NCBI GenBank assembly: GCA_021732445.1
Contig: JAKFUZ010000002.1
Location: forward strand, 62,001-126,000
DNA length: 64,000 bases
From: Sphingomonas sp.
GTDB lineage: Bacteria; Pseudomonadota; Alphaproteobacteria; Sphingomonadales; Sphingomonadaceae
Direction: 5' to 3'
Positions 52,243 to 60,422 of this stretch are shown here, piece by piece. The position numbers and the translations under genes were made by a program. Every line of letters begins with the position of its first letter. The first letter of the stretch is position 1. Below the pieces are notes generated by a model. It saw nothing but the letters and a program-made list of their open reading frames with translations, did no database searches and was not told the origin of the DNA.

Positions 52243-52296
52243 GAAAAATATGGTGGACGCACTTGGGCTCGAACCAAGGACCCGCTGATTAAGAGT
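52243..52296. repeat. Left attachment site (partial tRNA-Lys copy)
   Basis: This 54-bp sequence (starting GAAAAATATGGTGGACGCAC and ending GATTAAGAGT) is identical to 60369-60422. Bases 52251-52296 repeat the last 46 nucleotides of tRNA-Lys, from the CCA end through the anticodon loop. The integrase gene is 158 bases away at this end, while the intact tRNA gene is at the other end. Confidence 0.93.
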
Positions 52297-52454
52297 TTTG
52301 GAATCACGCCCTTGTGTAAGCTTGCGACAGCTTGTTCTAGCTTATGAAGTCTTTGATAATCAGTGCATTATGCCCCTTGCACGTTTGTGGTTGCTTGTCG
52401 TAGCTATAAGCTGCTTGCTAGAAATACGCTAGAATCTAGCAGCCAAGGAGCAGC
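52297..52454. other. Left-end integrase arm region
   Basis: This noncoding 158-base segment before the integrase gene holds TTCTAGC near 52335, the 17-mer GCTAGAAATACGCTAGA at 52417-52433 followed by ATCTAGC, and an AAGGAG ribosome binding site just before the integrase ATG. The GCTAGAA-type words probably are arm sites for integrase or the excision factor. Confidence 0.6.
52417..52433. repeat. Left copy of 17-bp end repeat GCTAGAAATACGCTAGA
   Basis: The same 17 bases occur at 60291-60307 near the right end, in the same orientation. Each contains two GCTAGA words 11 bases apart, about one helical turn. Candidate arm-type recombination site. Confidence 0.8.
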
Positions 52455-53747
52455 ATGGCGAAGATTACGAAGACCTTTGTGGACAAGGTCGCACCGCCCG
52501 CGTCGGGCTACGCGGTTCACTGGGACGACAGCGTGAAGGGCTACGGTCTCCGCGTCTCCGAGCAGGGCAAGCGGGTGTTCATCGTGATGGGACGGGTCGC
52601 CGGTAAGTCGATCCAGTTCACCCTTGGCCCATACGGCACGCTCACCGAGGATGCCGCACGCAAGCGGGCGCAGAAGGTGTTGCAGGACATGCGCGAAGGG
52701 ATCGACCCGCGCGCCGTGGTCAAAGCCGACGCGGCCATGAAGGTGTCGCTGCAAGACGTTCTGGAATCGTATGTCGGTCGCCCCGGCAAGCTGAAGGACA
52801 GCACGGCGCGCGAGTACCGCCGCCACGTTGAGGTTACGTTCGCCAAGTGGGCAGCACTCCCCATCGCCAGCATCACTCGCGACATGGTGAAGGAGCGCCA
52901 TGCGGCGCTGACCAAGGGCGGTCTAGACGGGAAGAAGGCAGCACCCGCCAGCGCCAACGCGGCGTTCGTCACCCTCCGCATCCTGATCCGCTTTGCGATG
53001 GACGAGTACCGGCAGGCGGACGGGAAGGCGCTTATCAGCGACAACCCGGTCGATGCGCTCAAGCACCATTGGGCCAAGCTGGGGACGCGCACCGAGCGTT
53101 ATATCGACAAGCGCAAGGTCGGTGAGGTCTGGAACAAGCTGCACGAAATGCGCGGCGAGGTGCAGGGTTATGAAGCACTTGCGTCGGTGGACCTCACCAT
53201 CTTCGCGCTGCTGACGGGCGCGCGTCGTGATGAAATGGCGACGCTGACGTGGGATCGCGTGCATATTGATGACCACAACCTGTCCGACAGCCTTTGGCAC
53301 CTGGACGACCGCAAGCGCGGCGACCCGATATGGCTTCCGCTCTCCTCGCAAGCTGTGGCGCTGCTCAAGTCGCGCCCGCGCCTCAAGCTGGAGGACGGCA
53401 CCGACAGCCCGTTCGTATTTCCCTCATGGGGCAAGACCGGCCGCATCATGGACGCCCGCGCTCCGATGGTGGCGATTGGCGAGATCGCCGGGAAGCATCT
53501 GTCGCTCCACGACCTCCGCCGCACGTTTACGAACATCGCCATGCGGGAATGCCTGATCGAGAAGTTCCGCACCGACCTACTGACCGGCCACAAGCCAGCG
53601 TCCGATGACGTTACCTCGCGGTCGTATCTCGACTTGGCACGCCTCGACTGGCTCCAGCCCGAGGTCCAGAAGATTGGTGATTGGATCGAGCAGCAGGCCG
53701 CTATCGCGGCCTGCAAGAACGTGGTGCCGCTGCGCGCCGCAGGGTGA
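52455..53747 (+). CDS. int: Tyrosine integrase (P4-like, DUF4102 N-terminus)
   Basis: A 430-residue site-specific recombinase. The N-terminal DUF4102 arm-binding domain (residues ~1-90, DDSVKGYGLRVSEQGKRVF, FTLGPYGTLTEDAARKRAQK) is followed by the SAM-like core-binding domain (~95-190) and a catalytic domain. Catalytic residues: Arg in LLTGARRDEM (~257), His352 and Arg355 in LHDLRRTF, His379 in LLTGHKP, and nucleophile Tyr391 in SRSYLDLA. AAGGAG lies upstream of the ATG. It lies beside the left attachment site, opposite the tRNA end. Confidence 0.96.
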   Translation: MAKITKTFVDKVAPPASGYAVHWDDSVKGYGLRVSEQGKRVFIVMGRVAGKSIQFTLGPYGTLTEDAARKRAQKVLQDMREGIDPRAVVKADAAMKVSLQDVLESYVGRPGKLKDSTAREYRRHVEVTFAKWAALPIASITRDMVKERHAALTKGGLDGKKAAPASANAAFVTLRILIRFAMDEYRQADGKALISDNPVDALKHHWAKLGTRTERYIDKRKVGEVWNKLHEMRGEVQGYEALASVDLTIFALLTGARRDEMATLTWDRVHIDDHNLSDSLWHLDDRKRGDPIWLPLSSQAVALLKSRPRLKLEDGTDSPFVFPSWGKTGRIMDARAPMVAIGEIAGKHLSLHDLRRTFTNIAMRECLIEKFRTDLLTGHKPASDDVTSRSYLDLARLDWLQPEVQKIGDWIEQQAAIAACKNVVPLRAAG

Positions 53748-54091
53748 TGCACGCGCTGGGCCGTGCAGCCGCCGCTACAGCGGTGAGGCCGGGGTGGCCA
53801 AGGGGTTAGGGGCGGCGGGGTGGCGATCGCGGCTGTAGCCGGCCTGTAGCCGAGAGGCCGTCGCCGGTCCTTCAAAACGCGCATTTCGAAGGAAATCGCT
53901 CCGAGGCCGGCGATAGGTCAATCGCCCCCTGATCGGTTTCTGAAGAAAAAGATTTAGCATCGCCTTCCCGAGCGAATCGATTTATGCGGGTCGGGAAGCC
54001 ACCCGTAAGAGGGACCGAGCTTCGCCGCATCAGCGGCGTTGCGAATAGCTCACCTGAGCGGCGATCACTTACCACAACCGGAGTGATCGCC
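53748..54091. other. Noncoding region after integrase with CTGTAGCC motifs
   Basis: No convincing gene is seen in these 344 bases. They hold GCTACAG at 53774, GGCTGTAGCC at 53831-53840 and CCTGTAGCC at 53843-53851, which match motifs in the 56.4-56.7 kb region, and a short A-rich stretch (GAAGAAAAAGATT). A 10-bp inverted repeat at its right edge is listed separately. Confidence 0.6.
54060..54091 (+). promoter_or_regulatory. Perfect 10-bp inverted repeat overlapping a ribosome binding site
   Basis: GGCGATCACT (54060-54069) and AGTGATCGCC (54082-54091) are exact inverse copies with a 12-base spacer, flush against the ATG at 54092. The likely ribosome binding site GGAG (54080-54083) runs into the right arm. 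It could be a repressor operator, or an RNA hairpin that hides the start site. Confidence 0.75.
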
Positions 54092-54307
54092 ATGCTGAAT
54101 ATCAGGCTCGCAAATACCCCTCTGTTTTGCACTCATGACATCGATGCAATCTTCGAATGTGCAGCGGAGCAAATATCGTCTGTGATAGCAGAAAGTGGAG
54201 AAGAACTTTTCTCTGCCAATCAGATTGGGAATGTTGTCCTTGAGAACATCGAATCTCGATTGCAGAATGCGTTAGATGATCTGCGCGACATGCGGGTTCT
54301 TGCATAA
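54092..54307 (+). CDS. Small protein of unknown function
   Basis: A 71-residue acidic, mostly helical protein (MLNIRLANTPLFCTHDIDAI at the start; ENIESRLQNALDDLRDMRVL at the end). Base composition is lower in GC than the host genes. No family recognised. Its start is overlapped by an inverted repeat, suggesting regulated expression. The same frame is open to 53984, but that extension looks unlike protein. Confidence 0.55.
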   Translation: MLNIRLANTPLFCTHDIDAIFECAAEQISSVIAESGEELFSANQIGNVVLENIESRLQNALDDLRDMRVLA

Positions 54308-59542: not shown

Positions 59543-59546
59543 CCAC

Positions 59547-59756
59547 ATGCGGTTGAACCTCCGAGCAATGGAACGCCGCATGGCGAAGCTGGAGCAGGCG
59601 GAGAAACCGAGACCGTCGCCCATCGCTGCCATGTACGGCTCGTTCGATACGTTCGTTGACGTGTCCTACGCGAAGATCATCGCGGGCCAGCTAGGCGAAG
59701 AGTTCTACGACGTGATCGACGCGCTGCGAGGCTGGGAGGGGCTGTATGCTCGCTGA
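59547..59756 (+). CDS. Unknown 69-residue protein
   Basis: Starts MRLNLRAMERRMAKLEQAEK (basic helix), then PSPIAAMYGSFDTFVDVSYA and ends YDVIDALRGWEGLYAR. I chose the ATG at 59547; the frame is open to 59376. It overlaps the next gene by 11 bases. Function unknown. Confidence 0.6.
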   Translation: MRLNLRAMERRMAKLEQAEKPRPSPIAAMYGSFDTFVDVSYAKIIAGQLGEEFYDVIDALRGWEGLYAR

Positions 59757-60132
59757 CGGTGAACCCACGTGGCTACTAGCGTGGCGGGACCAGCAACGTC
59801 AGCGCGAAGCTGCACCTGCTCCACCGCTGGCAGCGACGCCCGCACCAACGCCGTTGAAAGTCTATGCGCCGCGCGACACCGTGCAGTTCGCTAAGGTGCA
59901 GGGTGCGGACTTGCAGGGCATGATTGTCCCGGCACGATGGCCCTTCGACGGGGGCGTGCGCCGTGAGCCGGTGATGGACACGGATTACCCGCCGCGTGTG
60001 GTCAGGAAGGTCGGCTGGCATCGCTGTCTCAAGTGCAAGATGCCATTTTGGAGCGAGGACGTGCTTCGCCAGCGGCTTTGCGTCGGCGACGGCTTTGTCG
60101 GATGCAGAAGCGACGAAGACAGATTTACGTAG
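59746..60132 (+). CDS. Zinc-ribbon-like unknown protein
   Basis: The 128-residue protein has an N-terminal Trp/Gln/Ala-rich part (GEPTWLLAWRDQQRQREA), a Pro-rich linker, and a C-terminal HRCLKCKMPFWSEDVLRQRLC followed by GFVGC, whose Cys spacing suggests a zinc ribbon. This is the last gene of the element. Zinc ribbons often bind nucleic acid or partner proteins; the role is unknown. Confidence 0.68.
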   Translation: MLADGEPTWLLAWRDQQRQREAAPAPPLAATPAPTPLKVYAPRDTVQFAKVQGADLQGMIVPARWPFDGGVRREPVMDTDYPPRVVRKVGWHRCLKCKMPFWSEDVLRQRLCVGDGFVGCRSDEDRFT

Positions 60133-60368
60133 TTCCAGGGTTCGTGGCCGGAAGTCGCCACGCCGAGGCATAGCGGTGCGTTCCTCGATAAATCCAACGA
60201 CCGCACCAGCGGGGACTCATCTCCTTCGGTCCTGACGTTGTGCAGCGCCTCGCGCCCTCGGGTGCGGGGCGTTGCTGTGAATGCGACGCAGCTAGAAATA
60301 CGCTAGAGCGCAAAATGCAGCCGCGCTCGGAGCGACCCGCGATACCGCGTAAGTGTTTGTTTTTGCTA
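60133..60368. other. Right-end noncoding region of the element
   Basis: No gene is seen in these 236 bases. They hold the right copy of the 17-bp end repeat (60291-60307), AAGTGTTTG at 60351-60359 and GCTAGA at 60365-60370, directly at the attachment site. Several GC-rich inverted segments (e.g. around 60250-60272) could form a terminator for the operon. Confidence 0.55.
60291..60307. repeat. Right copy of 17-bp end repeat GCTAGAAATACGCTAGA
   Basis: Identical to 52417-52433 in the same orientation. It lies 62 bases inside the right attachment repeat; the left copy lies 120 bases inside the left one. Confidence 0.8.
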
Positions 60369-60422
60369 GAAAAATATGGTGGACGCACTTGGGCTCGAAC
60401 CAAGGACCCGCTGATTAAGAGT
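60369..60422. repeat. Right attachment site within tRNA-Lys
   Basis: The second copy of the 54-bp repeat. It contains the last 46 bases of the intact tRNA-Lys gene plus eight flanking bases including the T-run (minus strand) that could terminate the tRNA transcript. Integration duplicates these bases, so the tRNA gene remains whole. Confidence 0.93.

What the first reader, a model, noticed from the sequence alone, without database searches (positions are those of the whole stretch)
52243..60422. An 8.1-kb satellite-like element in tRNA-Lys with replication and possible packaging genes but no virion genes
Seen: 54-bp att repeats, tyrosine integrase, AlpA-like regulator, DUF3987-like protein, DUF5681 protein and an overlapping run of small unknown genes, with no capsid, tail, portal or large terminase. 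Known: P4-like satellites and PICIs carry integrase, an AlpA-type regulator, a replication module and sometimes a small-terminase-like gene to take over a helper phage. Inference: this is a sphingomonad phage satellite of an undescribed type.
Basis: partly seen in the sequence, partly recalled or inferred. Interest (0 to 1): 0.88.

Follow-up and report, generated by a model that had tools for sequence, protein, structure and literature searches.

The report
New phage-satellite family in sphingomonads
A small stretch of DNA parked in a tRNA gene appears to be a parasite of bacterial viruses, one of a family that shares one unknown protein, often carries anti-virus defence genes, and in some members brings its own DNA-packing motor but no shell.

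Summary
Window 52243-60422 is an att-bounded 8.13-kb element in tRNA-Lys with an integrase, an AlpA-like regulator, a DUF3987 helicase and small genes, and no virion gene found. The genome has a second, related element in tRNA-Ser; relatives occur across Sphingomonadaceae. They share a protein, here called g6 (57608-58360), without a match in 50,697 public phage records (three versions tried). Where g6 was called (35 of 38 stretches), its neighbour is DUF5681 in 19, a terminase large subunit (TerL) in 8, neither in 8, never both. Seventeen att-bounded elements (8.0-11.6 kb) show no portal or capsid among called genes of 250 aa or more; 7 of 17 carry defence cargo. dN/dS is below 0.6 throughout. 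The host genome has no TerL of the searched family, so the helper is probably an outside phage. Best reading: a phage-satellite family that I did not find described in the papers searched. The window member borrows the helper's motor and shell, while a sister branch brings its own TerS and TerL. g6 as the shell- or portal-coupling factor is inference. No transfer was shown.

The parts
52243..52296 (.). attL, 54-bp copy that includes the 3' half of tRNA-Lys
   Evidence: two copies, 8126 bp apart
52417..52433 (+). 17-bp repeat, left copy; probable integrase arm site
   Evidence: 2 matches in the window, 0.03 expected; the same pair lies inside both ends of L034 and, with 2 mismatches in one copy, L066. 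Role inferred
52455..53747 (+). tyrosine integrase, 430 aa
   Evidence: 96% identical to the integrase of L034, also in tRNA-Lys; dN/dS 0.05 between them
54092..54307 (+). small protein, 71 aa, unknown
   Evidence: part of an ORF; no family; a small ORF lies in the same place in L034, L039 and L077
54436..54687 (+). AlpA-like helix-turn-helix regulator, 83 aa
   Evidence: PF12728 and phrog_66
54889..56403 (+). DUF3987 replicative helicase, 504 aa, without the N-terminal primase part
   Evidence: about 47-49% identical to (primase/)helicases of the best-ranked phages of 57-64 kb, among them Sphingomonas phage vB_StuS_MMDA13 at 47.7%
56683..57225 (-). accessory gene in the middle cargo slot, 180 aa (phrog_37247, unknown)
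   Evidence: distant homologues in two Brevundimonas phages of 348 kb only; the same slot holds other genes in relatives
57608..58360 (+). g6, 250 aa: gene shared by the whole family; mostly helical model
   Evidence: no Pfam hit above cut-off and no PHROG; three versions without a match in 50,697 phage records; called in 35 of 38 fetched stretches; model pLDDT 81.4
58395..58886 (+). DUF5681 protein, 163 aa
   Evidence: PF18932 1.1e-10; within 1 kb of g6 in 19 of 35 loci and never together with TerL
58977..59357 (+). g8, 126 aa, conserved in class A
59354..59542 (+). g9, 62 aa, conserved in several class A elements
   Evidence: 56-61% identity in L009 and L010; no Pfam family
59547..59756 (+). 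g10, 69 aa, conserved in class A
59746..60132 (+). g11, 128 aa, four invariant cysteines (zinc-ribbon-like by eye)
   Evidence: alignment of four; no family
60291..60307 (+). 17-bp repeat, right copy
60369..60422 (.). attR, 54-bp copy overlapping the intact tRNA-Lys
60377..60452 (-). tRNA-Lys(CTT), integration target

Best explanation
The element is a phage satellite of an undescribed family marked by the protein g6. Shown from sequence: it is bounded by tRNA att repeats; related elements sit in tRNA-Lys, -Ser, -Arg, -Gly, -Asn and -Thr sites of different genomes; it carries integrase, regulator, helicase, g6 and a small-gene module; no virion or conjugation gene was found in it; and dN/dS between relatives is well below 1. 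Inferred: when a helper phage infects, the AlpA-like regulator switches the element on; the integrase excises it using the tRNA core and the 17-bp arm repeats; the helicase replicates it with a primase borrowed from host or helper; g6, with the DUF5681-g11 module, directs the DNA into particles made by the helper. The window type (class A) must use the helper's TerL; a sister type (class B) supplies its own TerS and TerL and borrows shells and tails. g6 is the best candidate for the factor that couples the satellite to the helper's shell or portal. Two slots hold swappable cargo, often anti-phage defence.
For: att repeats and tRNA; families and no virion hit; related element in the same genome; g6 in 17 of 397 Sphingomonadaceae and 13 of 246 Sphingomonadales genomes, overlapping samples; TerL in class B (seven of eight over a Pfam cut-off, the eighth, L067, below it) and TerS (two tested), with conserved ATPase and nuclease residues in an alignment of eight TerL; g6 neighbour is DUF5681 in 19, TerL in 8, neither in 8, both in 0 of 35 loci; called genes of 250 aa or more in 17 att-bounded elements accounted for without capsid or portal; defence cargo in 7 of 17 (L010, L036, L042, L044, L045, L046, L066); dN/dS 0.05-0.54; no phrog_2 TerL in the host genome while the control rang in 11 of 14 genomes; g6 is the one long stretch at 93% nucleotide identity between the two resident elements.
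Against: No induction, excision or particle was observed. No class A protein could be tied to packaging: DUF5681 did not match class B TerS and its model was poor. g6 has no recognisable fold. No helper is known. The family is rare in IMG/VR: of six scans, two found nothing and four gave three contigs with g6, two of them beside capsid and portal genes. Some members look damaged: g6 cut short in L011, short g6 calls in L069 and L157, the integrase in two ORFs in L042, g6 in two ORFs in L046. The host genome was searched with one terminase family only, so a resident phage of another terminase type is not excluded.
Confidence: 0.78

Rival explanations
1. A decayed prophage: an ancestor with virion genes lost them, and the remnant is no longer mobile.
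For: The helicase is related to a phage primase/helicase and lacks its N-terminal part; class B relatives keep TerS and TerL; two IMG/VR members lie beside phage genes; some members are damaged.
Against: Ten class A elements with both att copies fall in a narrow 8.0-10.0 kb range with similar gene order; dN/dS is low; the window's att copies are intact; three g6 versions found nothing in 50,697 phage records.
Confidence: 0.07
2. A non-phage integrative island, for example a defence island moved by its integrase, or mobilised by a conjugative element through an oriT.
For: Integrase plus defence cargo (in relatives) also fits generic islands; class A has no demonstrated packaging gene; oriT sites are hard to see by sequence and were not searched.
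Against: No relaxase hit in the window element; AlpA-like gene plus replicase plus compact size is satellite-like; relatives through g6 carry a terminase, which is expected to serve only phage-type packaging.
Confidence: 0.1
3. A Gram-negative PICI in the strict sense, only with divergent genes.
For: Same logic: integrase at one end, AlpA, replicase, then small genes, no structural or lysis genes (features in PMC6092414, passages).
Confidence: 0.05

Closest known systems
Gram-negative PICIs (PMC6092414, passages read)
   Same: Integrase, AlpA-type regulator, replication module, cargo genes, no structural or lysis genes, site-specific att.
   Different: 8-10 kb (about 15 kb is stated there for Gram-positive PICIs); own marker g6; a DUF5681 module of unknown role; class B carries TerL, which the passages I read do not list for classical PICIs.
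Capsid-forming PICIs (described in the introduction of PMC10690885, passages read)
   Same: Class B also carries small and large terminase subunits.
   Different: cf-PICIs also carry capsid, protease, portal and connectors; none was found among called genes of 250 aa or more in class A or B.
PICMI (PMC10803314, passages read)
   Same: Minimal: integrase, AlpA, primase; no capsid-remodelling gene; the described helper is virulent.
   Different: About 6 kb, next to fis in Vibrionaceae, no terS homologue; the present family sits in tRNA genes of Alphaproteobacteria and has g6.
P4-like satellites (features recalled; named in PMC11389934 and PMC10690885 passages)
   Same: Integrase, AlpA-like regulator, helicase-type replication protein, defence cargo (recalled for P4).
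   Different: No Psu, Sid or Delta family hit among the ten window proteins scanned.
MulchRoom and MiniFlayer satellites of Streptomyces phages (PMC10690885, passages)
   Same: Satellites that encode terminase subunits.
   Different: They encode capsid and portal and lack primases; the present family has replication genes and no capsid or portal found.

Membership tests
phage satellite (general) | att-bounded, integrase, regulator, replication gene, no virion structural genes | tested here: met
   window; called genes of 250 aa or more in 17 att-bounded elements accounted for; smaller genes of the relatives were not all scanned
phage satellite (general) | induced by and packaged in particles of a helper phage | not testable with these tools
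   no reads, no particles; indirect support from TerS and TerL in class B
Gram-negative PICI | int, AlpA, replication module, no structural or lytic genes | tested here: met
   compared with PMC6092414 passages
Gram-negative PICI | typical size about 15 kb (stated for Gram-positive PICIs) | tested here: not met
   8.13 kb; class A 8.0-10.0 kb
Gram-negative PICI | attachment sites never occupied by prophages (stated for Gram-positive PICIs) | tested here: inconclusive
   in L077 a prophage with SU10-type portal and capsid starts at the element's tRNA-Lys-like core, but this is one metagenome contig
Gram-negative PICI | genes orthologous to PICI-exclusive genes | not tested
   no PICI gene collection was at hand
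cf-PICI | own capsid, portal, protease and terminase genes | tested here: not met
   no such hit in the window element; only TerS and TerL found in class B
PICMI | integration next to fis in Vibrionaceae; core int, alpA, prim | tested here: not met
   tRNA sites in Alphaproteobacteria; PMC10803314 passages
P4-like satellite | Psu, Sid and Delta homologues (recalled) | tested here: not met
   no such family among ten window proteins at E up to 1 in Pfam and PHROGs
integrative mobilizable or conjugative element | relaxase or conjugation genes | tested here: not met
   (an oriT was not searched)
prophage | capsid, portal and tail genes | tested here: not met
   window; relatives: genes of 250 aa or more

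The most novel reading that the evidence does not exclude
The g6 family shows a packaging strategy between classical satellites and cf-PICIs: class B elements bring a complete motor (TerS plus a TerL with its active-site residues) but no shell, and g6, the one protein common to all branches and not seen in phages, is a dedicated adaptor that docks the satellite onto foreign procapsids or reshapes them. Class A replaced the motor with the DUF5681 module, which retargets the helper's motor. Exchange of g6 alone between the two elements in one genome would then reflect adaptation to the same helper.
Probability: 0.35. Interest if true: 0.85.

Novelty: new variant of a known kind. Interest (0 to 1): 0.64.

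Why it matters
Phage satellites are known from few host groups, and by title and abstract start none of the papers listed in five searches of the open-access library describes one from sphingomonads. This family would extend them to Alphaproteobacteria with a marker protein that lets others find them, links them to varied anti-phage defence cargo, and contains a branch with a terminase motor but no capsid found, which makes the question of how a satellite's motor works with a foreign portal directly testable.

Tried and rejected
Decayed prophage and conjugative island were considered and judged unlikely (see rivals). DUF5681 as a small terminase: not supported; hhalign against class B TerS gave probability 0.3 on its percent scale, the AF2 model had pLDDT 55.8, and in 99 Sphingomonadaceae genomes (36 with a DUF5681 match, 35 over the cut-off) the 26 neighbourhoods printed mostly show, by eye, a ParB- or methylase-type gene beside it; one (L118) is followed by a Terminase_6C protein. 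Fold of g6: no Foldseek match at E below 0.001 in PDB or the viral library; VIA-align best Z 9.8, inside the helical-bundle background the tool states; profile search of PDB sequences gave only weak rows, best E 0.011, and DUF5681 likewise. IMG/VR: searches found nothing, three g6 contigs (L049; L077, the same contig as L112; L111); the five other DUF5681 loci had no g6 label. DUF5681 and g11 of L010 against phage records: no match. Middle gene 56683-57225: no PADLOC hit, two distant phage matches. Clean occupied/empty comparison: no listed match of the joined-flank query ran from the left flank across the att core in a relative (list truncated); in 5 of 29 relatives (L089, L093, L094, L096, L101) the tRNA-Lys by rodA is followed by the same conserved genes with no integrase, that is empty, but none of the ten loci tested, the window among them, shares that left flank. 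Class-wide g6 search with two profiles: 4 of 385 and 6 of 385 genomes. Not counted as family members: L070, L073 and L159 (no g6 called); L076 is in the 35 but doubtful (g6 at 2e-7, no element around it); G871 was not fetched. A paper search with DUF5681 or Sphingomonadaceae listed, in its eight rows, only papers without the term DUF5681.
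Full report
What is there. The window element runs from 52243 to 60422. Its 54-bp end repeats are identical and 8126 bp apart; the right one overlaps an intact tRNA-Lys(CTT). In order it holds a tyrosine integrase, a 71-aa ORF, an AlpA-like helix-turn-helix protein, a DUF3987 helicase, a 180-aa gene on the opposite strand, g6, a DUF5681 protein and four small genes g8 to g11. The helicase matches the phage family phrog_3022 'DNA primase' at 2e-129 over positions 311-780 of 788 only; the best-ranked phage relatives are primase/helicases at about 47-49% identity, among them Sphingomonas phage vB_StuS_MMDA13 at 47.7%. 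None of ten proteins scanned against Pfam and PHROGs is a capsid, portal, tail, terminase or relaxase; g9 has no Pfam family.

Excision signals. A 17-bp sequence occurs twice in the 64-kb window, both times inside the element and near its ends, against 0.03 expected. Of 13 elements examined, three have the pair: the window, L034, whose integrase is 96% identical, and L066 (two mismatches in one copy). L077 has one exact copy near its right end, and nine have none within 3 mismatches (L009, L010, L032, L036, L037, L039, L040, L046 and the class B element L044). This is what one expects if each integrase type has its own arm sites; that these are arm sites is inference.

A related element in the same genome. 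The host genome holds a second element of 8.0 kb in tRNA-Ser, whose end repeats are only 79% alike. Between the two, the integrases are 44% identical and the DUF5681 proteins 40%, but g6 is 97.6% identical in protein and 93.2% in DNA over 57598-58360; elsewhere there is an 83-bp stretch at 86% just upstream (57334-57415), 76% over 59354-60280 and 70% over 53337-53928. This is a mosaic: g6 was exchanged as a unit between the elements, or came from a common source.

The family. A g6 profile found 17 of 397 Sphingomonadaceae genomes, a wider one 13 of 246 Sphingomonadales genomes and, across the class, two profiles 4 and 6 of 385; these samples overlap. tblastn of three g6 versions against 50,697 phage records gave nothing. 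I annotated 38 stretches in one pass with profiles built from some of the same loci. g6 was called in 35. DUF5681 lies within 1 kb in 19 (class A), a TerL within 1.5 kb in 8 (class B: L042-L045, L047, L048, L067, L075), neither in 8, and never both. An integrase match lies in 30 of the 35 stretches, though in L011, L033, L069 and L149 it may belong to something else; L076 is doubtful. One class B fragment is also in IMG/VR (L049).

Bounded elements. Ten class A elements have both att copies, 7999 to 9959 bp apart, in tRNA-Lys or tRNA-Ser; in the three tRNA-Ser ones (L009, L037, L040) the copies are 78-80% alike. Seven class B elements have them 9150 to 11587 bp apart, in tRNA-Arg, -Lys, -Gly, -Asn or -Thr, L042 and L044 with short repeats of 18 and 24 nt. 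The genes of 250 aa or more that my gene finder called in these 17 and my profiles left unlabelled were all looked up: a caspase, AAA_25 helicase-like proteins, restriction and modification enzymes, an OLD nuclease, an AAA_21/DUF4435 protein, a replication initiator-like protein, a primase/helicase and one transposase; no portal or capsid. Smaller genes of the relatives were not all scanned. Damage is seen in some: the integrase lies in two ORFs in L042 and g6 in two in L046.

The terminase branch. All eight class B TerL proteins match a Pfam terminase model: in seven at least one match exceeds its cut-off (best E 3e-11 to 1e-4), in L067 none does (best 0.0036). Five tested match phrog_2 TerL at 1e-23 to 1e-28, and two tested small partners match phrog_309 TerS at 1.7e-8 and 4e-15. 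An alignment of the eight shows conserved Walker A and Walker B residues and the aspartates I recall as the nuclease site. dN/dS is 0.10-0.15 for TerL, 0.26-0.43 for TerS and 0.20-0.35 for class B g6 in the pairs tested. The best-ranked phage TerL is 30% identical, and all 577 matched records are below 60%. The order is integrase, AlpA-like gene, primase/helicase, TerS, TerL, g6 in L042-L044 and L067; L075 is alike but no AlpA label was found; L045, L047 and L048 vary.

Cargo. The slot between the last core gene and attR, and a second slot between helicase and g6, differ from element to element. Found there: EcoRI-like endonuclease plus methylase (L036, L046), SmaI-like endonuclease plus methylase (L044), other type II endonucleases (L042, L066), OLD (L045), a retron-type reverse transcriptase (L067), caspase plus ThsB-like TIR (L010), TIR proteins (L032, L041). 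Of the 17 bounded elements 7 carry such genes; L040 has only a weak hit (4e-5), and not all cargo genes were scanned. The window's own accessory gene 56683-57225 has no defence hit.

Selection. dN/dS between class A members is 0.05-0.14 for the integrase, 0.07-0.15 for alpA, 0.27 for the helicase (one pair), 0.05-0.25 for g6, 0.12-0.32 for DUF5681, 0.33-0.54 for g9, 0.30-0.41 for g10 and 0.16-0.49 for g11; g8 was compared only among L009, L010 and L032, 0.37-0.53. Several dS values are near or above 1, so the ratios are rough, but all are below 1.

Helper. No phrog_2 TerL was found in the 2.84-Mb host assembly (100% complete by the tool's figure, 38 contigs), while the same profile rang in 11 of 14 control genomes. 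Other terminase families were not searched there. So no resident prophage with that kind of TerL is seen, and the helper is likely an incoming phage. In one IMG/VR contig (L077, L079, L080) a class A element is joined at a tRNA-Lys-like core to a prophage with SU10-type portal and capsid (5e-164 and 1e-84). In another (L149) a class A element lies beside a primase-like gene followed by gpA-type TerL, lambda-type portal and a capsid protein. These are leads for helpers, tandem insertions or neighbouring satellites, not proof.

What g6 may do. The model is mostly helical, with long helices and one short strand pair, mean pLDDT 81.4 from an alignment of five, and no fold match stands out. Known capsid-redirecting satellite proteins are often helical (recalled). 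The case for a packaging or shell role rests on position: it is the only non-integration, non-replication gene seen in all three branches, it sits beside TerS and TerL where those exist, and no phage match was found. I hold this at about 0.4.

Literature. Searches of the held open-access library for 'phage satellite' with Sphingomonas (2 papers), 'phage satellites' with Alphaproteobacteria (5 papers), satellite with terminase terms, VEIME, tycheposon and PICMI and SatelliteFinder listed nothing that by title and abstract start describes this family; I read passages of PMC10690885, PMC10803314, PMC11389934 and PMC6092414 and only listings of the rest. The VEIME and tycheposon papers themselves were not read, so a terminase-bearing satellite there cannot be excluded.

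Verdict. The new points are the marker g6, the branch with its own terminase and no shell found, and the defence cargo. Function remains to be shown.

Noticed in passing
L077, L079 and L080 (IMG/VR record G904, 36.5 kb): A class A element joined at a tRNA-Lys-like core to a prophage with SU10-type portal and major capsid protein; possible helper or tandem insertion.
   Followed up: partly
L149 (IMG/VR record G959, 18 kb): A class A element beside a primase-like gene, then gpA-type TerL, lambda-type portal, capsid protein and integrase; resembles a capsid-forming satellite or a prophage end.
   Followed up: partly
L082, L091, L103, L104, L107 (tRNA-Lys by rodA in relatives): A different integrase gene abuts the same tRNA-Lys in 5 of 29 relatives, so this tRNA is a shared insertion hotspot.
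   Followed up: no
window 51951-52105: DNA just left of attL has 90-95% matches to three other places in the genome, perhaps a degenerate insertion sequence.
   Followed up: no
L068, L072, L158: Gene-poorer g6 elements (class C) with integrase, HTH gene, DUF3987 helicase, g6 and small genes, no DUF5681 or terminase label, near tRNA-Ser; L072 has a 28-nt end repeat 9121 bp apart, and L158 is in another family of the class.
   Followed up: partly
L010 13126-14622: Caspase plus ThsB-like TIR pair carried as satellite cargo.
   Followed up: no
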